Part shown: piece by piece, positions 7,190 through 13,409 of the stretch | How the letters are laid out: every line of letters begins with the position of its first letter | Numbering within the stretch: position 1 is the first letter of the stretch | NCBI GenBank assembly: GCA_946407635.1 | Contig: CAMJOZ010000008.1 | Coordinates: 1-35,453, forward strand | Length of the DNA: 35,453 bases | Origin: an uncultured Caryophanales bacterium | GTDB lineage: Bacteria > Bacillota_I > Bacilli_A > Acholeplasmatales > Anaeroplasmataceae | Direction: 5' to 3' | The notes under the pieces: generated by a model | Told to the model about the DNA's origin: nothing | The model's input: only the letters and a program-made list of their open reading frames with translations | Databases searched by the model: none | Position numbers and translations under genes: made by a program

Positions 7190-7218
7190 TTTATATTTAA
7201 AAAAATCTATAACATAAG

Positions 7219-7262
7219 AAAAATCCCACAATTACACAAATTGTAGGATTTACTATTATTAT
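7219..7262 (-). repeat. 44-bp direct repeat, left copy (terminator of the accessory island)
   Basis: Identical over 44 bases to 13366-13409. It contains an intrinsic terminator for minus-strand transcripts: a 13-bp stem (AAATCCTACAATT pairing with AATTGTGGGATTT, one G-U pair) with a 5-nt loop, then a T run. It begins 21 nt after the stop of the 383-residue gene. Identity covers the loop and the flanks, including the TAATAATAGTAA string that serves as the stop of frr in the other copy, so duplication is more likely than convergence. Confidence 0.92.
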
Positions 7263-7283: not shown

Positions 7284-8435
7284 TTAGTTTTTTTCGATTG
7301 AAAAGAAATATTCATTATTCCAATCACGATTGTTTTCACTTTCCCATTCTTTAATACGTTCTTCTACCATAGTATCAACTACCACACGATTCCATAATGA
7401 TATTATATAACGATGTGTGCATTTGTAATCGTTATTATCGTAATCAAACCAGTCTTTTTCCTCATTATCATATTTTGGATAATAATACCAACCATAATCG
7501 ATATGTAAATCTTCTATGTTTAATGTATTATTCGCTGTAGAAATAATTCTTTTAGTAAACTCATCTATTAAAACTTCATAAGATAAATCATGTTGGATTT
7601 TAGTCTTATTCCAACCAGCAGAAGTTCGTTTTTCATTAATTAATTTTGTTGAAACCCATGCTTCAGGTTCGTAAACTATATATCCATTAATTTCATCAAA
7701 TGTAAAGGGTTCATCTAAATCATCTATATTTACGCTTCCATCTTTAATTTGTTTAGGAGCTTTTGTTATAGCATGAAAAAAAGTCTTTTTCCCGTCTTCT
7801 CTAAATATTAGTCTATCATCTTTATCAAATGTTTCTTCATCATCATCAATCAATTCATGTACTCTATCAACTAATTGTTTTGCAAAAGGAATAACCAATC
7901 TATTTAAATATTCTTTTCTATCATCTTCTTTAGTTAAATCTAATCCTCCAGAAACATCTTTAGCATCTTCATCATTTTCTTCTTGCACATCAAATGAATC
8001 ACTAATTGCTTTAAAAACATCATCATTATTATAAACAAATGGTTTAGATTCCTTAGGTAATTTAGAAAATTTAGCTTTATATTTTTTTATTTCGTCCTTA
8101 ATTGATTCATCATGTTCTAATATAAATGTTTCAAGAATATTTACATAATTCTTATTAAAAGAATCAATTTCTTGTTTTAATGCTTCTTGTTTTTTTATTT
8201 CTTCTTGATGTTTTTGTTCAATCACATCAAGTATTGCCATATTAATACCAGATTCTTGAACGATTTGTGGATTGATACCACTTAATTCACTTTTAATATC
8301 TATATATTCTTTATATATTTCATTTGAATATCCAGTTGCAAACATTTTTGCAATTAATGCATCATATTTCCCCTTTATATTCTTTACCTTTTCAATATCA
8401 CCGAAATTTCCACCGCCAAAATCAAAATCACCCAT
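7284..8435 (-). CDS. Acidic orphan protein of the T7SS-like island
   Basis: A 383-residue soluble protein that I do not recognise. It opens with a Gly/Phe-rich tag (MGDFDFGGGNFGD), then a helical and probably coiled-coil region (about 14-135, with KKQEALKQEI), an acidic linker (about 150-175), and an alpha/beta C-terminal half rich in Trp, Tyr and Asp (for example DYGWYYYPKYDNEEKDWFDYDNND). It has no signal peptide, membrane helix or catalytic motif that I can name. It is the last gene of the island, with a strong SD (AGGAGG), 12 nt after the coiled-coil gene. It could be a chaperone, adaptor or effector for the ATPase and WXG100 proteins; that is inference from position only. Confidence 0.8.
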   Translation of the reverse strand: MGDFDFGGGNFGDIEKVKNIKGKYDALIAKMFATGYSNEIYKEYIDIKSELSGINPQIVQESGINMAILDVIEQKHQEEIKKQEALKQEIDSFNKNYVNILETFILEHDESIKDEIKKYKAKFSKLPKESKPFVYNNDDVFKAISDSFDVQEENDEDAKDVSGGLDLTKEDDRKEYLNRLVIPFAKQLVDRVHELIDDDEETFDKDDRLIFREDGKKTFFHAITKAPKQIKDGSVNIDDLDEPFTFDEINGYIVYEPEAWVSTKLINEKRTSAGWNKTKIQHDLSYEVLIDEFTKRIISTANNTLNIEDLHIDYGWYYYPKYDNEEKDWFDYDNNDYKCTHRYIISLWNRVVVDTMVEERIKEWESENNRDWNNEYFFSIEKN

Positions 8436-8447
8436 TTTTATATCCTC

Positions 8448-9413
8448 CTAAAATTTAATTATGCTGGCTATCAAAATCCATGCTAATAGTCCTGATCCTT
8501 CTATTTTTTGACTATCATTAAAAGATTTTAATTTACTTAATTTAATTGTTTTTACTTCTTTTTTTGCATAGCTATCATATTGACTTAAATAATCATACAT
8601 AGCAAGCATTACATCCGCTGCGTCGTTTAAATATCTAACAGTATCTGTTGCGTCTGCCATATTTTTTATTGCACCATCATTCAAACTATCAAAAACATTA
8701 TCTTGATTATTATAAATATCTTTAACATCATTTGCTAATTTAGTAATGATTTTATAAATATCATCAGATTTTTTTATTAAATGTTTATTGTAATCCTTTA
8801 AAATATCTTTATCTATTTTTAAATAATATGATTCGTTGTATCCAACACCTAAAACTGATGGAACTCTATAATAATCAGTTATTATTTCAATTACACTATT
8901 TAAATCATTTAATAATTCTTGATTTCTATCATCAATAAATCTTTTACATTCTTTATAATCTGAATATGCAGTTTCTAAAAATCTCGAAGCGTTTTGTAAC
9001 ATAGTTACATATTCTTGTTGTAATTTAATAACTTGTGTATAAATATTGATATTGTTTTGTAATCTTCCTTTTTCTCTTGACAACACTGCAATTTGTTTAT
9101 TAATTCCTGCTATTTCACGCATAGCAGTAAATTTGCTTTCTTCATCCTTCATTGATTGCATAATTGAATTTCTTGCAGCCTCAAGTTCTGCAATCTTATT
9201 TCTAACAAATGCCAATCTAGATTCAAGTTGACTTTTTTCTGATTGATAATATTGAAGTAAATTTCTTTCTCTTGGTAAAGTATCATTAACTTCATTAAAA
9301 TTATCAGAAATAATTCTGCCTACATCATCAATAAACTTATTGGTATTTTCAATTACTTTATTCTCTAGTAAATCTCTAGTACTTAAAATTGTTTCAAACA
9401 CGAATTCTGCCAT
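8448..9413 (-). CDS. Long coiled-coil protein with hydrophobic C-terminus (T7SS-like island)
   Basis: A 321-residue, almost wholly helical protein. Residues about 50-165 show strong coiled-coil character, rich in Glu, Lys, Gln and Leu (for example EKSQLESRLAFVRNKIAELEAAR), followed by further helices to about 290. The end is abrupt: residues 308-319 (GLLAWILIASII) are purely hydrophobic, then Lys-Phe. Twelve residues is short for a membrane span but could insert in a membrane or pack on a partner. The start has only a weak, distant SD (AAGGG) 2 nt past the 73-residue gene, suggesting translational coupling. A structural component or exported helical substrate is plausible; no family is recognised. 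Confidence 0.8.
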   Translation of the reverse strand: MAEFVFETILSTRDLLENKVIENTNKFIDDVGRIISDNFNEVNDTLPRERNLLQYYQSEKSQLESRLAFVRNKIAELEAARNSIMQSMKDEESKFTAMREIAGINKQIAVLSREKGRLQNNINIYTQVIKLQQEYVTMLQNASRFLETAYSDYKECKRFIDDRNQELLNDLNSVIEIITDYYRVPSVLGVGYNESYYLKIDKDILKDYNKHLIKKSDDIYKIITKLANDVKDIYNNQDNVFDSLNDGAIKNMADATDTVRYLNDAADVMLAMYDYLSQYDSYAKKEVKTIKLSKLKSFNDSQKIEGSGLLAWILIASIIKF

Positions 9414-9415
9414 AA

Positions 9416-9637
9416 TTATTTAAGTCCCTTCAATAGATTATTGATTTTATCTTTCTTAGAGGAATTATGTAATTCATGCATTATCTTTTTACAATTATCC
9501 TGAACCTTATCAAAATACTCTAGACTTTTATTGATTTCAGTAAATGATTCAATAAAATATTTCCCTGTCTTATCTTTCCAACATCCATTATCAATGTTTT
9601 CAATTAAAATATTATATGGATATTCTTTTTTATTCAT
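9416..9637 (-). CDS. Small WXG-like protein, 73 residues
   Basis: A small helical protein with no annotated relative that I recognise. The stretch GCWKDKTGKYFIESF (about 18-32) resembles the turn of WXG100 proteins, a Trp followed by Gly and spaced Phe residues, and the following helix (about 33-70) resembles their second helix. The first helix is much shorter than in true WXG100 proteins (about 100 residues), so this is either a divergent or a shortened member. Its SD is poor and it lies 5 nt after the 97-residue gene, which again suggests coupling. Family placement is tentative. Confidence 0.7.
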   Translation of the reverse strand: MNKKEYPYNILIENIDNGCWKDKTGKYFIESFTEINKSLEYFDKVQDNCKKIMHELHNSSKKDKINNLLKGLK

Positions 9638-9642
9638 AAATT

Positions 9643-9936
9643 CTACTTCTTAATATCCAACTTAACCGCACTAGCAACATCAAGTTCATCAGCCTTAGCT
9701 CTAGCTCTTTTTACTAGTTCTAACATTTCTCTAACTTCGTTATGAGTATTAAGACAAAGAATTCTAAATTGTTCTGTAAACTGATCATATTGTTCACCAG
9801 ACCAATAATTATGCATTTGTTGATGCTTTTTAAAGAAATCATTCATTTCAGAAACAATATCAACACCAAATTTTTGTAGTTCATTACAAAAATCTCTTAA
9901 ACTTTCGGAATTACTATTATTTAAAATATCTGACAT
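9643..9936 (-). CDS. WXG100-family protein (ESAT-6/EsxA-like)
   Basis: A 97-residue protein with the hallmarks of WXG100 proteins: normal length, two amphipathic helices (about 8-42 and 48-85), and a W-S-G turn at residues 45-47 within HNYWSGEQYDQF, where Tyr and Phe follow at the usual spacing. Family members are secreted as helical-hairpin dimers by type VII secretion ATPases of the FtsK/SpoIIIE class. The C-terminal Y-x3-D/E export signal is not evident, which is common for one partner of a heterodimer. It lies between the 90- and 73-residue genes, behind AGAGGA. The adjacent ATPase gene makes a T7SS-like role likely. Confidence 0.85.
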   Translation of the reverse strand: MSDILNNSNSESLRDFCNELQKFGVDIVSEMNDFFKKHQQMHNYWSGEQYDQFTEQFRILCLNTHNEVREMLELVKRARAKADELDVASAVKLDIKK

Positions 9937-9939
9937 ACG

Positions 9940-10212
9940 CTATATCCTCTTATTATATTCCACATATAGTTTGTGAAGCTTCTTAGCAACTTCAGCCATA
10001 TTATCCATAGCTTCACCCATTTTTTTAATATTATCACATATTGTATCAACATGCTCACAAGCTGATGTAATTACTTCATCATTAAAATTTATCGCAGCGT
10101 TTGATGCATCTTTACCATGCTTAACAGTATCAAACATTTTAGATTTCATACTATCTAAGTATTTTAGATATGCATTAAGTGCGTTAGTGTCTAAATAAAA
10201 TTTATCTGCCAT
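9940..10212 (-). CDS. Small helical-hairpin protein, probable WXG100 partner
   Basis: A 90-residue helical protein with two predicted helices (about 7-38 and 46-85) separated by a short turn (NFNDE). Length and layout match WXG100 and related Esx partners, but the W-x-G motif is absent; an Asn-Phe-Asn turn takes its place. The C-terminus ends in LYVEYNKRI, close to but not matching the Y-x3-D/E export motif. It lies directly after the ATPase gene, whose stop falls inside the SD-to-start spacer (GAGGAG then ATG), and just before the W-S-G protein. This gene order suggests that the two small proteins form a heterodimer (inference). Confidence 0.75.
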   Translation of the reverse strand: MADKFYLDTNALNAYLKYLDSMKSKMFDTVKHGKDASNAAINFNDEVITSACEHVDTICDNIKKMGEAMDNMAEVAKKLHKLYVEYNKRI

Positions 10213-10214
10213 AT

Positions 10215-13200
10215 CTATTTCTCCTCAAAATTATATCTCTTGAATTTAATATAATTATCTCCATTAACATATACTGAATTTTGTTTTTCAATATCAACCT
10301 TACGAGATGAATATGATGTCTTCTCTAAATAATAATTAACTGCTTCTTTATTTAAATAAAATCCATATTCAAAATATCCCTTTGTTTGATAATCAAATAT
10401 TCCATCAAGATTTTTATCAGTATCAGAATGGATAAATAAGTAAATGCCATATTTATAGCTTTGAGAATAGATTTCTTTAATCATATCGATAAGTGTTTTA
10501 TCAACACTAGAAGATTTAGATGAACCACCACCCAAGAATGATAAATCTATTGGTAATCCAAATTCGTCAACTGAACTTGAACTAGAATCATTATCTTCTT
10601 CATGAAAGTAATCACTAAATTGTTTATAATCAAAATCATTAATGATTAATATTCTTTCATTTAATTTAGAAATATCGATTCCTTTATTTGATTGCTTTCT
10701 TCTATCAACCATTTCTAAATATAATTCTGATACAACATTATGTAAATCATTCAAAGATTTTAATACTTTTATATCATTTAAATTGTTATTAAAGAAATCG
10801 TATGATTTAGGGGAACAATATAAATTACATTCTAAATCATTTGATGTAACATATTTACTTTTTAATATCGCTGCCTCAATATCATAATTCTTCTTATTAT
10901 CACCAAGAATAATATAATTTGAAAATGTATCATGTGATAATCTCATTGTTACATGCTCATTATCAAATACAGATATACCTAAATCGATAATTCTATCATC
11001 TTGAATTGCTTTATCATCATAATTAACAATTGTTTCATCATTAGAAACTATTATATTAGTTGGATAAATATCAGATGGATATTTTTCTCTAATCATTCTA
11101 ACTATCTTATCTTTAGATATTTCTTTATCATCTTTAGATTTGTTTGGTATATAAGCACTTCTAAATATTGAAGCATCCTTACCATTAGATGTGTGATATG
11201 CAGAACCTTTTGGAAGACCATTTAATTCTTTTTCAGCACTATATGGTAATGATTCTATTAAACCAGTTAATACACCTTCAGATTTGAAAACTACACGATG
11301 ACTAATTTGAGATAGTATCTCTTTACCACAGGCATTAACCTGACTTGCTAGGATTAAAGATATGCCTGCGGTTCTACCTCTTTTAACAATATCTTTTAAG
11401 ATTTCTTCACATTGTGATGCAATTCTAGAATTTGAATTAGATGTACCACCATTTAATAAGACTTGGTATTCATCTATAACAATAAATAATCTAGAAATAG
11501 GATTATCCTTATGATCTTCGTTATAAGAAATAATATCTTTATAATTTCCTTGTCTAATTAAATCATTTCTTCTTTCAAAAATAGTTTGAATCTTTTGCAA
11601 AATAGTTAATGCATCATCTATCGTATTTTTTCTAGAAATTAATTTAATATGCGGAATACTATATTTATCTATATAAGGTCCAAATTCAACGCCATCTTTA
11701 AAATCAATTAAATAAAATTGAAGTTGTTTTGGATTATATAAATAAGCACTATCCAAAATCATAGTATGTAAGAATTCAGATTTACCAGAACCAGTTGTAC
11801 CAGCGACAATCATAAATGATTCACCACTACCTAAAACATCAAATGTAATATTTTTTATACTAGGTCCTGTTTTACCAACAGGTATTGTAATTTTTCTTGA
11901 GAATGATGATGTATCTATATTATTTTCATCATTAACAATATCATTAAATGAAATATATGTATTATTATCAATTTTTCTATTAGATAACGAATCTAAGAAT
12001 GTTTTTAAATTAAAATCTTTTGGTTGTAAATTTAAATTAACTACTTCATCGTTATATTTACAATTCTTTTCATCGAAACAATCAAATTCAATAAAATTAT
12101 AATCATCTGAATTAAATTTTATACATTCATCATTATATGTTTCATTATATTTATCATCACTTATAATAACTGTAAAAATACCATTAGTATTTCCATCTAC
12201 TGCTAGTTGTTCTATTTTTCTCTTACAATCCTCATTCATAGATGTAACATCATCAATTATAACAATAATATAAGGATCCTTATTTGATTGATTATTCTTG
12301 TTAAATTCAAAGAAATCACCATCAAATATATATCTAGAAGCTCTATTTTCTAGTTTTTCAATTAATTCAGTTAAAATAGCATCCGCGTAACTTAATCTAT
12401 GCACTTCAGATATGCTATTTGGATTTGTTGATGATTTTTTTAATAATATTGATAAACCAGCAATATCAGTTGGCATATCACCGACTAATACTATTTCAAT
12501 ATTTTTATCACCTATTTTATCAAAATATTGTAACATTAAATCTTTAATGAATGGATATTTTGAGTTTGAGTTTGCGTGATATAAAATATTACCTTTACCT
12601 TTTAAATCTTGATAGATAAATGGTTCGTGAGTATCATTCTTAAAACCAATAACAACTTTAGAAACATCATCACTTAAACTTGTAGAACATCCTATATAGG
12701 CTTCATTTATTTTAGAAGCTAATTCATTTTCGATATCGTTTATTTGTTGTTTTAAATCATTTATCTTTTCGTTATATTTATTTTCAATAACTACAGCTTT
12801 TTTATAATATTCTTCTTTTTCTGATTCTTTATATTTTGAATCATAAAACTTATCAAAATTATCTAATATGTATTGATTTTGATTTATAGCTGGTCCAATA
12901 AGATTAGTTATTCCTAAAAAAGAAGATAGATTTGTATTTGTTAATCTATTAAATTGATAAGCACCTTGTTTTATTTTTTCTAAATTGTTATTAAAGATGT
13001 TCTCAAAATCAGGTGTAACATCTAATTTTAATGGTTTGAAAACAACCTTTACTTGTTCATTTTTACTAATAAAAAAAGAACGAGAATTATAATCATTAAC
13101 ACCTTTTAATGCACTATTATGAATATTATTTAATGATTCATATAGTTTATTTCTAGCATTTTTGAAAGGAACTAATAAAGAATCGAGTTCTTTATTTTTC

Positions 13201-13253
13201 TCGTCTTCTAATTTATTTATTTGTTTTTGCAATAATTCAATTTCTTCACTCAT
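10215..13253 (-). CDS. FtsK/SpoIIIE-family ATPase, soluble EssC/EccC-like
   Basis: A 1012-residue motor protein. Coiled-coil stretches lie at about 1-55 and 140-185. Three RecA-like modules follow. Module 1 (about 200-400) keeps a Walker B-like IIVIIDDV near 330 but no P-loop. Module 2 (about 445-720) is canonical, with GTTGSGKS at 485-492, RLFIVIDE with Asp594-Glu595, and the family motif RGRTAGISLILASQ. Module 3 (about 755-1012) is degenerate, with a LIINDF strand near 870 and a Ser/Gly-rich insertion near 880-915. This is the EssC/EccC multi-ATPase plan, but no FHA domains or membrane helices are visible, unlike known T7SS motors. It is the first gene of the island; its SD is weak. A DNA-pumping or defence role is the main alternative. 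Confidence 0.88.
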   Translation of the reverse strand: MSEEIELLQKQINKLEDEKNKELDSLLVPFKNARNKLYESLNNIHNSALKGVNDYNSRSFFISKNEQVKVVFKPLKLDVTPDFENIFNNNLEKIKQGAYQFNRLTNTNLSSFLGITNLIGPAINQNQYILDNFDKFYDSKYKESEKEEYYKKAVVIENKYNEKINDLKQQINDIENELASKINEAYIGCSTSLSDDVSKVVIGFKNDTHEPFIYQDLKGKGNILYHANSNSKYPFIKDLMLQYFDKIGDKNIEIVLVGDMPTDIAGLSILLKKSSTNPNSISEVHRLSYADAILTELIEKLENRASRYIFDGDFFEFNKNNQSNKDPYIIVIIDDVTSMNEDCKRKIEQLAVDGNTNGIFTVIISDDKYNETYNDECIKFNSDDYNFIEFDCFDEKNCKYNDEVVNLNLQPKDFNLKTFLDSLSNRKIDNNTYISFNDIVNDENNIDTSSFSRKITIPVGKTGPSIKNITFDVLGSGESFMIVAGTTGSGKSEFLHTMILDSAYLYNPKQLQFYLIDFKDGVEFGPYIDKYSIPHIKLISRKNTIDDALTILQKIQTIFERRNDLIRQGNYKDIISYNEDHKDNPISRLFIVIDEYQVLLNGGTSNSNSRIASQCEEILKDIVKRGRTAGISLILASQVNACGKEILSQISHRVVFKSEGVLTGLIESLPYSAEKELNGLPKGSAYHTSNGKDASIFRSAYIPNKSKDDKEISKDKIVRMIREKYPSDIYPTNIIVSNDETIVNYDDKAIQDDRIIDLGISVFDNEHVTMRLSHDTFSNYIILGDNKKNYDIEAAILKSKYVTSNDLECNLYCSPKSYDFFNNNLNDIKVLKSLNDLHNVVSELYLEMVDRRKQSNKGIDISKLNERILIINDFDYKQFSDYFHEEDNDSSSSSVDEFGLPIDLSFLGGGSSKSSSVDKTLIDMIKEIYSQSYKYGIYLFIHSDTDKNLDGIFDYQTKGYFEYGFYLNKEAVNYYLEKTSYSSRKVDIEKQNSVYVNGDNYIKFKRYNFEEK

Positions 13254-13329: not shown

Positions 13330-13365
13330 GATTTTAATAATTCAAAACATAGTTATATTCGTAAA

Positions 13366-13409
13366 AAAAATCCCACAATTACACAAATTGTAGGATTTAC
13401 TATTATTAT
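13366..13409 (-). repeat. 44-bp direct repeat, right copy (frr terminator)
   Basis: The second identical copy of 7219-7262. It starts inside the last codons of frr (its TAA stop is in the repeat) and forms the intrinsic terminator of the rpsB-tsf-pyrH-frr operon: a 13-bp stem, 5-nt loop and eight Ts on the minus strand. Because it is fused to frr, this copy is probably the original and 7219-7262 the duplicate. The repeat period is 6,147 bp. Confidence 0.92.

What the first reader, a model, noticed from the sequence alone, without database searches (positions are those of the whole stretch)
10215..13253. ATPase with one active module between two degenerate ones, and no membrane anchor
Only the middle module has both Walker motifs (485-492, 594-595). 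The first keeps a Walker B-like strand without a P-loop and the third keeps neither clearly. The N-terminal coiled coils replace the FHA and membrane region of EssC. A substrate-binding role for the outer modules, as proposed for EccC, would fit, but the active module is in a different place.
Basis: partly seen in the sequence, partly recalled or inferred. Interest (0 to 1): 0.55.

Follow-up and report, generated by a model that had tools for sequence, protein, structure and literature searches.

The report
Membrane-free type VII-like motor cassette
An uncultured Bacilli-type bacterium carries a six-gene insert whose motor protein is kin to the ATPase of type VII secretion but shows no membrane anchor, next to the small hairpin protein that usually goes with such motors, which raises the question of what this motor does inside the cell.

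Summary
The 1012-aa ORF (minus strand, 10215-13253) has three FtsK-type modules. Only the middle one has Walker A (485-492) and Walker B (594-595), and no membrane helix or FHA domain is found. It is the first gene of a tight six-gene operon (7284-13253) with a WXG100-type hairpin protein, two other small proteins, a 321-aa coiled-coil-like protein and a 383-aa unknown. The operon sits between frr and cdsA, flanked by a 48-bp direct repeat whose 35-base core occurs only there in the genome.

The motor groups with 12 relatives (99/95) inside the EssC module clade (100/99.7), apart from FtsK, SspH-like and viral FtsKs. The same architecture (central module active, N-terminal coiled coil in place of FHA and membrane helices, two WXG100 proteins) was described in 2024 for EssC-like ATPases of Type III-A CoCoNuT defence loci (PMC11090510), and a Caballeronia protein from such a locus lies in our clade. 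The window is thus a stand-alone Bacilli variant of a known kind.

That the active module is "in a different place" is unresolved: profile alignment favours DUF-D1-D2, trees favour D2. Function is inferred: a cytosolic motor controlled by hairpin proteins and acting on a coiled-coil partner, probably in defence or toxin handling.

The parts
10215..13253 (-). EssC/EccC-type ATPase without membrane anchor, 1012 aa; N-terminal helices about 1-190, module 1 (degenerate) about 195-440, module 2 (active, Walker A 485-492, Walker B 594-595) about 441-740, module 3 (degenerate) about 741-1012
9940..10212 (-). 90-aa protein without a WxG motif (WXG100-like by position only)
   Evidence: 2-bp gap to the ATPase gene; no family above its cut-off; sequence
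9643..9936 (-). 97-aa WXG100-type hairpin protein, W45-S46-G47 at the turn
   Evidence: PF06013 E 0.0029, below its cut-off; similar to Helicobacter L186 89 aa, E 0.001, and G139 104 aa, E 0.002; AF2 pLDDT 82, two helices 10-44 and 47-96; the 34 best Foldseek hits are all WXG100/Esx structures, E 0.2-1.6, none at 0.001
9416..9637 (-). 73-aa protein with W-K-D-x-x-G-x-x-F; the same form of motif is in one small protein of four other cassettes
   Evidence: PF06013 E 0.04, below cut-off
8448..9413 (-). 321-aa coiled-coil-like protein with short hydrophobic C-terminus (candidate cargo/partner)
   Evidence: position matches 290-aa (G025) and 322-aa (G139) proteins, which resemble each other (E 3.5e-7) but show no match to this one
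7284..8435 (-). 383-aa protein of unknown family, last gene of the operon
   Evidence: 12-bp gap; no family above its cut-off; none in PADLOC
13362..13409 (.). 48-bp direct repeat, copy at the frr end (holds a terminator-like hairpin; overlaps the last 4 bases of the frr ORF)
7215..7262 (.). 48-bp direct repeat, copy at the cdsA side, 47 of 48 identical, also terminator-like

Best explanation
The cassette encodes a relative of the type VII secretion motor that lacks the membrane part. SHOWN by sequence: three FtsK-type modules with one complete ATP site in the middle; Arg562 and Arg627 conserved in 13 of 13; no membrane anchor found; an operon with a WXG100-type hairpin protein and other small proteins; kinship to a CoCoNuT-linked EssC-like ATPase; position between frr and cdsA inside a direct repeat; no other EssC and no other WXG100 match found in this 95%-complete genome. 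INFERRED: the middle modules form a hexameric ATPase ring; the degenerate modules and the N-terminal helices hold the ring together and dock partners; the hairpin proteins act as signals or adaptors that switch the motor on, as Esx proteins do for EccC (recalled); and the motor loads, unfolds or keeps in check the 321-aa coiled-coil partner inside the cell. Defence or toxin handling is the most likely purpose, because relatives sit in a CoCoNuT-type locus and beside toxin and immunity genes.
For: Family HMM: five relatives not used to build it (L187, L104, L184, L186, L185) score 180-696 bits against 45-74 for the EssC HMM; EssC proteins L088 and L089, not used in the EssC HMM, score 1689 and 1592 there and 154 and 142 with the family HMM. 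Clade support 99/95, 98/96, 86/88; with EssC modules 100/99.7. Same layout (ATPase, three or four small proteins, then a larger, coiled-coil-like protein) in window, G025, G139, G238, G291, G339 and G614. Caballeronia relative in a VWA/WXG100/CARF/PP2C/kinase/AAA locus. Helicobacter relative beside WXG100 (E 4.6e-5), WHH/colicin-DNase and SMI1 genes. G551 relative beside a papain-fold toxin domain, E 2.1e-8. In G000 no TIGR03928 match at E<=1e-60; tblastn of the ATPase finds only itself and a 788-aa FtsK-type frame at 25%; the only WXG100 match at E<=0.01 is this cassette. None of the six operon proteins passes the TM threshold. 48-bp repeat, core unique, frr and cdsA adjacent in 9 of 10 relatives in view.
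Against: No toxin, nuclease or immunity domain was found in the window's own 321- and 383-aa proteins, and neither matched a protein of the other cassettes compared. The WXG100 match is below Pfam's cut-off. Several relatives have membrane proteins in or next to the operon (G139 14 TM segments, G238 and G291 6 TM, G196, G551), so secretion by another route is open. G196 has a canonical EssC as well, so the two kinds can coexist. Three of the 13 ATPases (G291, L185, L186) and G614 have one segment just over the hydropathy threshold. No model of the ATPase was usable (pLDDT 41). Absence from a 100-contig, 95%-complete genome is not proof. I saw no experimental work on this family.
Confidence: 0.5

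Rival explanations
1. A reduced but true secretion system: the ATPase powers export of the hairpin and coiled-coil proteins through a membrane protein encoded elsewhere or through a non-standard partner.
For: Relatives G139, G238, G291, G339, G196 and G551 carry multi-TM proteins in or next to the cassette; WXG100 proteins are classic T7 substrates (recalled); in ESX-1, EccC is split and EccCb1 (D2-D3) is a separate chain (passage).
Against: None of the window's six cassette proteins and none of G025's passes the TM threshold. In the Helicobacter and Caballeronia loci no multi-TM protein lies next to the ATPase, though one segment is flagged in the Helicobacter ATPase and in the Caballeronia CARF protein. 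No second T7 locus was seen in the genome.
Confidence: 0.25
2. A protein-remodelling or quality-control motor unrelated to toxins: the ATPase unfolds marked proteins, with ubiquitin-like enzymes in some relatives.
For: G551, G196 and L104 operons have ThiF (E1-like) and JAB genes and L187 has ThiF; the Rhodococcus relative lies beside Hsp70, TPR and GrpE genes.
Against: The window cassette shows no E1, JAB or chaperone gene; CoCoNuT, HNH/SMI1 and papain-fold toxin contexts point to conflict.
Confidence: 0.15
3. A DNA-translocating FtsK/HerA-type motor of a mobile element, with WXG-like genes there by accident.
For: FtsK superfamily; the cassette sits inside a direct repeat; SspH and mad8 defence profiles hit module 2 (E 7.5e-18 and 1.3e-15).
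Against: Module 2 groups with EssC D1/D2 against FtsK, SspH-like and viral FtsKs at 100/99.7; WXG-type genes sit beside the ATPase in many relatives; no integrase, relaxase or replication family above its cut-off in the six proteins.
Confidence: 0.07

Closest known systems
EssC-like ATPase/WXG100 module of Type III-A CoCoNuT loci (PMC11090510; section 10 read in full; other passages)
   Same: Three ATPase modules with only the central one active, N-terminal coiled coil in place of FHA and TM, no TM, WXG100 proteins with and without the motif, coiled-coil partner gene; the Caballeronia CoCoNuT-type ATPase L184 lies in the same clade.
   Different: The window has no VWA, kinase, phosphatase, CARF or McrBC genes beside it, no recognisable nuclease on the coiled-coil protein, an extra W-K-D small protein, and a Bacilli-type host. 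The paper itself cites a stand-alone form (Anantharaman 2012, not held).
EssC/EccC of type VII secretion (T7SSa-j; PMC11217815 abstract, outline and passages; PMC9436818 and PMC11154593 passages)
   Same: FtsK-type modules in tandem, degenerate plus active modules, WXG100-type partner, module-level kinship 100/99.7.
   Different: No TM pair, no FHA, three instead of four modules; TIGR03928 gives 75 bits against a cut-off of 778. [quoted passage not shown]
EccCb1 (ESX-1)
   Same: Separate chain of EccC modules without the N-terminal part.
   Different: EccCb1 holds D2-D3 and works with EccCa1, which holds DUF and D1 (passage); no such second chain was found here.

Membership tests
FtsK/SpoIIIE ATPases (PF01580) | domain above the curated cut-off | tested here: met
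   81.8 bits against 24
Canonical EssC/EccC (T7SS ATPase) | pair of N-terminal membrane helices | tested here: not met
   highest 19-residue hydropathy mean 1.43, below all 8 EssC measured (1.50-2.54)
Canonical EssC/EccC (T7SS ATPase) | family model cut-off (TIGR03928, TIGR03924, TIGR03925) | tested here: not met
   75, 80 and 67 bits against 778, 509 and 347
Canonical EssC/EccC (T7SS ATPase) | four modules DUF-D1-D2-D3 | tested here: not met
   three modules
Canonical EssC/EccC (T7SS ATPase) | active module is D1 | tested here: inconclusive
   profile alignment favours DUF-D1-D2, score 275 against 240; trees favour D2, 98/87 and 97/92, with D1 not rejected, AU p 0.41 and 0.21
Canonical T7SSb | EssB/YukC partner | tested here: inconclusive
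   PF10140 found in 0 of 15 genomes, including ones with canonical EssC, so the test has no power here
CoCoNuT-type EssC-like ATPase/WXG100 module | three modules, only the central active | tested here: met
CoCoNuT-type EssC-like ATPase/WXG100 module | no TM, N-terminal coiled coil | tested here: met
   no TM; N-terminal helices predicted, parts with pLDDT 66-82, so the coiled coil itself is only likely
CoCoNuT-type EssC-like ATPase/WXG100 module | clade with a CoCoNuT ATPase | tested here: met
   13 rows incl. L184: 99/95, 98/96, 86/88
CoCoNuT-type EssC-like ATPase/WXG100 module | WXG100 proteins with and without the motif | tested here: inconclusive
   97-aa protein has WSG and a predicted hairpin but is below Pfam's cut-off; 90-aa protein has no family above cut-off
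CoCoNuT locus | McrBC-type core, VWA, kinase, phosphatase | tested here: not met
   neighbours are frr, pyrH, tsf, rpsB and genes that I read as cdsA, dxr and rseP (names from sequence reading)
HerA/VirB4/phage-type motors | closest kin among these | tested here: not met
   HerA E 1.5e-4 against EccC 3e-45; viral FtsK rows outside the clade; no structural test possible

The most novel reading that the evidence does not exclude
A mobile, purely intracellular WXG100 machine: in at least this genome, where no membrane type VII system was found, an unanchored EssC-type ring and dedicated small hairpin proteins (in the family often with W-x-D instead of W-x-G) act on a cytosolic coiled-coil partner, so that the type VII toolkit has been turned into a defence or toxin-control device rather than a secretion system.
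Probability: 0.35. Interest if true: 0.75.

Novelty: new variant of a known kind. Interest (0 to 1): 0.5.

Why it matters
WXG100 proteins and EssC-type motors are read as marks of secretion. A motor of that kind without a membrane anchor, in a genome where no other type VII gene was found, would show that the pair can work in the cytosol. It would also give a small six-gene system in which the action of hairpin proteins on the motor can be tested without membrane proteins.

Tried and rejected
AF2 of the ATPase with three sequences gave pLDDT 41, so it was not put to a fold search. Four further viral-contig scans to deepen the alignment gave the L104 contig again or nothing. The first genome-contig scan found nothing; the second found G025's own contig and two FtsK-type proteins with membrane segments. 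PF10140 as a test for EssB has no power here. PADLOC hits to SspH/mad8 reflect the FtsK module and were rejected by the tree. GC content does not mark the cassette as foreign: 25.2% against 24.9-32.1% in sliding stretches of the same size, some of which overlap it. No long direct repeats flank the G025 cassette. 'The active module is D2' and 'it is D1' were each favoured by one method and neither was rejected.

Parts seen only: of 5 plasmid records matched at E<=1e-15 three were opened, of 67 phage records at E<=1e-8 one. Of 44 genomes matched in the phylum sample, 7 have matches over more than 500 profile positions (I count these as the family); the other 37 have shorter matches and most were not opened. 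Rows left out: G339 is near-identical to G291 and was in alignment A2 but not in the 13-row set; G614 was found last and is in no alignment or tree; three long-branch D2 rows and three FtsK rows (L005, L023, L024) were left out of the careful trees, and all D2 rows of the second T7 group out. The second T7 group scores 87-112 and the SspH-like L044 132 with the family HMM, near the 134-154 of canonical EssC, so that HMM alone does not rank the outer kin. The reading of the 154-aa protein in G551/L104 as E2-like is mine; it has no Pfam match. The W-x-D pattern was written after seeing the proteins, so its shuffle control (13 of 31 against mean 0.26, largest 3) overstates it. Paper searches were judged by their listings, apart from the papers named as read.

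Full report
What is there. Pfam finds one FtsK/SpoIIIE domain (453-587, 81.8 bits). Walker A (485-492) and Walker B (594-595) are in the middle module only. Module 1 keeps a Walker B-like strand, module 3 a G-x-N turn where the P-loop would be. Profile comparison shows that modules 1 and 3 are degenerate copies of the same fold: module 1 against 2 E 1e-10, 2 against 3 E 3e-8, 1 against 3 E 1e-6. No membrane helix was found by hydropathy (1.43 at most) and no FHA match.

The operon. Six minus-strand genes, 7284-13253, are spaced by 2-12 bp: ATPase; 90 aa; 97 aa with WSG; 73 aa with WKD; 321 aa coiled-coil-like; 383 aa. The 97-aa protein matches WXG100 below the cut-off (E 0.0029) and is predicted as a hairpin with W45-S46-G47 at the turn (pLDDT 82). 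Its 34 best Foldseek matches are all WXG100/Esx structures, although with E 0.2 to 1.6 and none at 0.001. It resembles small proteins of other cassettes (Helicobacter E 0.001, G139 E 0.002).

An insertion. The operon lies between frr and cdsA. A 48-bp repeat, 47 of 48 identical, flanks it (7215-7262 and 13362-13409); a 35-base core of it occurs exactly twice in the genome, both here. Each copy holds a terminator-like hairpin on the minus strand. In the genus 26 of 27 genomes have frr, the window's among them. Of 11 relatives' loci fetched, 10 reach cdsA: it follows frr after 90-139 bp in 9, and behind one opposite-strand ORF in the tenth.

How common. The ATPase was found in 2 of 27 genomes of the genus (E<=1e-9) and 3 of 160 of the order (E<=1e-50). 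In a class sample 13 of 395 genomes matched (E<=1e-14); by length, gene context and hydropathy 6 of these hold the unanchored form, the other 7 EssC-length or membrane FtsK-type proteins. In a phylum sample 44 of 392 matched (E<=1e-30), 7 of them over more than 500 profile positions, one of these cut by a contig end; most of the other 37 were not opened.

Kinship. The family profile finds EccC/EssC as best solved relatives: 4nh0 E 3e-45, 7np7 5e-33, 9qks (YukB) 3e-29; FtsK 2e-18; HerA 1.5e-4. Family members and canonical EssC separate by HMM score, also for proteins not used in building. In trees of the P-loop module the 13 proteins are one clade (99/95; 98/96; 86/88), and with EssC D1 and D2 they form a clade that excludes FtsK, SspH-like and viral FtsK rows (100/99.7). 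The clade includes a Caballeronia plasmid protein in a CoCoNuT-type locus.

Which module is active. The literature gives EccC/EssC as DUF (degenerate), D1 (active), D2, D3 (PMC11154593 and PMC9436818, passages read). The 13-row profile aligns best as DUF-D1-D2 (score 275, E 7e-31), second as D1-D2-D3 (240, E 1e-26); against a second group of T7 ATPases the difference is larger (262 against 78). With the first, 8-row profile the best hit was the single module on D1 and the three-module hit was D1-D2-D3. Module by module, module 2 is nearest D1, but modules 1 and 3 are nearest D2 rather than DUF or D3. Trees put module 2 beside D2 (98/87, 97/92), with D1 not rejected (AU p 0.41, 0.21). The CoCoNuT authors also call it D2. 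The register is open.

Prior description. PMC11090510, section 10 (read in full), describes EssC homologs with three ATPase domains, only the central one active, an N-terminal coiled coil in place of FHA and membrane helices, two WXG100 proteins (one without the motif) and a coiled-coil nuclease, and says a stand-alone form was noted before (Anantharaman 2012, not held). PMC11217815 (abstract, outline and passages; [quoted passage not shown] My searches for WXG100 with JAB/E1/E2 or with an unanchored ATPase listed no paper whose title or abstract points to the Bacilli form; they cover open-licence papers only and I judged them by the listings.

Contexts of relatives. Few or no extra genes: window, G025, G614 and, with a 14-TM neighbour, G139. 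With 6-TM proteins: G238, G291, G339. With ThiF and JAB genes: G551, G196, L104; with ThiF: L187. With toxin domains: G551 (papain-fold, E 2e-8), Helicobacter (WHH/colicin-DNase plus SMI1). With Hsp70/GrpE: Rhodococcus. G196 also has a canonical EssC. G537 lies at a contig end and its context was not assigned. Among 31 small proteins of these cassettes 13 hold W-x-D-x-x-[YHGF] and 3 hold W-x-G (pattern chosen after seeing them).

Mechanism. Shown: one ATP site per chain, conserved arginines (R562 and R627 in 13 of 13), operon partners, no anchor found, no second T7 gene found in the genome. Inferred: a hexameric ring driven by the middle module, hairpin proteins as switches or adaptors, the 321-aa protein as partner or cargo, and a defence or toxin-control purpose. 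I hold this at 0.5; a reduced secretion system at 0.25.

Verdict. A sound observation and a real, inserted cassette, but a new variant of a kind already described, whose mechanism I found reported for no member.

Noticed in passing
L083 (G551), L104, L039 (G196), L187: Operons in which the unanchored EssC-like ATPase and WXG-type proteins go with ThiF (E1-like) and, in the first three, JAB genes plus a conserved 154- to 199-aa protein without Pfam match (40-82% identity) that may be E2-like (my reading).
   Followed up: partly
L186:6518-10920: Helicobacter plasmid: WXG100-like protein, 340-aa protein with C-terminal WHH/colicin-DNase domain, SMI1/KNR4 protein and the EssC-like ATPase in one run of genes; looks like a toxin/immunity pair.
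   Followed up: partly
L044:8671-10542 (G139): 623-aa FtsK-type protein close to SspH of phage defence (PADLOC E 2.7e-57) amid large unannotated genes.
   Followed up: no
L040:12274-15498 (G139): 1074-aa protein with about 14 hydrophobic segments in its C-terminal half, 11 bp upstream of the EssC-like ATPase gene; no Pfam match.
   Followed up: no
L085, L090-L102 (G185, G236 and others): A second group of T7-type ATPases, open frames of about 1020-1370 aa, below the TIGR03928 cut-off, most of those listed with membrane segments: possibly further T7SS subtypes.
   Followed up: no
L021:403-2179 (G025): Two neighbouring genes (TPR-like by my reading, not scanned) share a 300-bp repeat (91%) at their 5' ends, as if recently duplicated within the cassette.
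   Followed up: no
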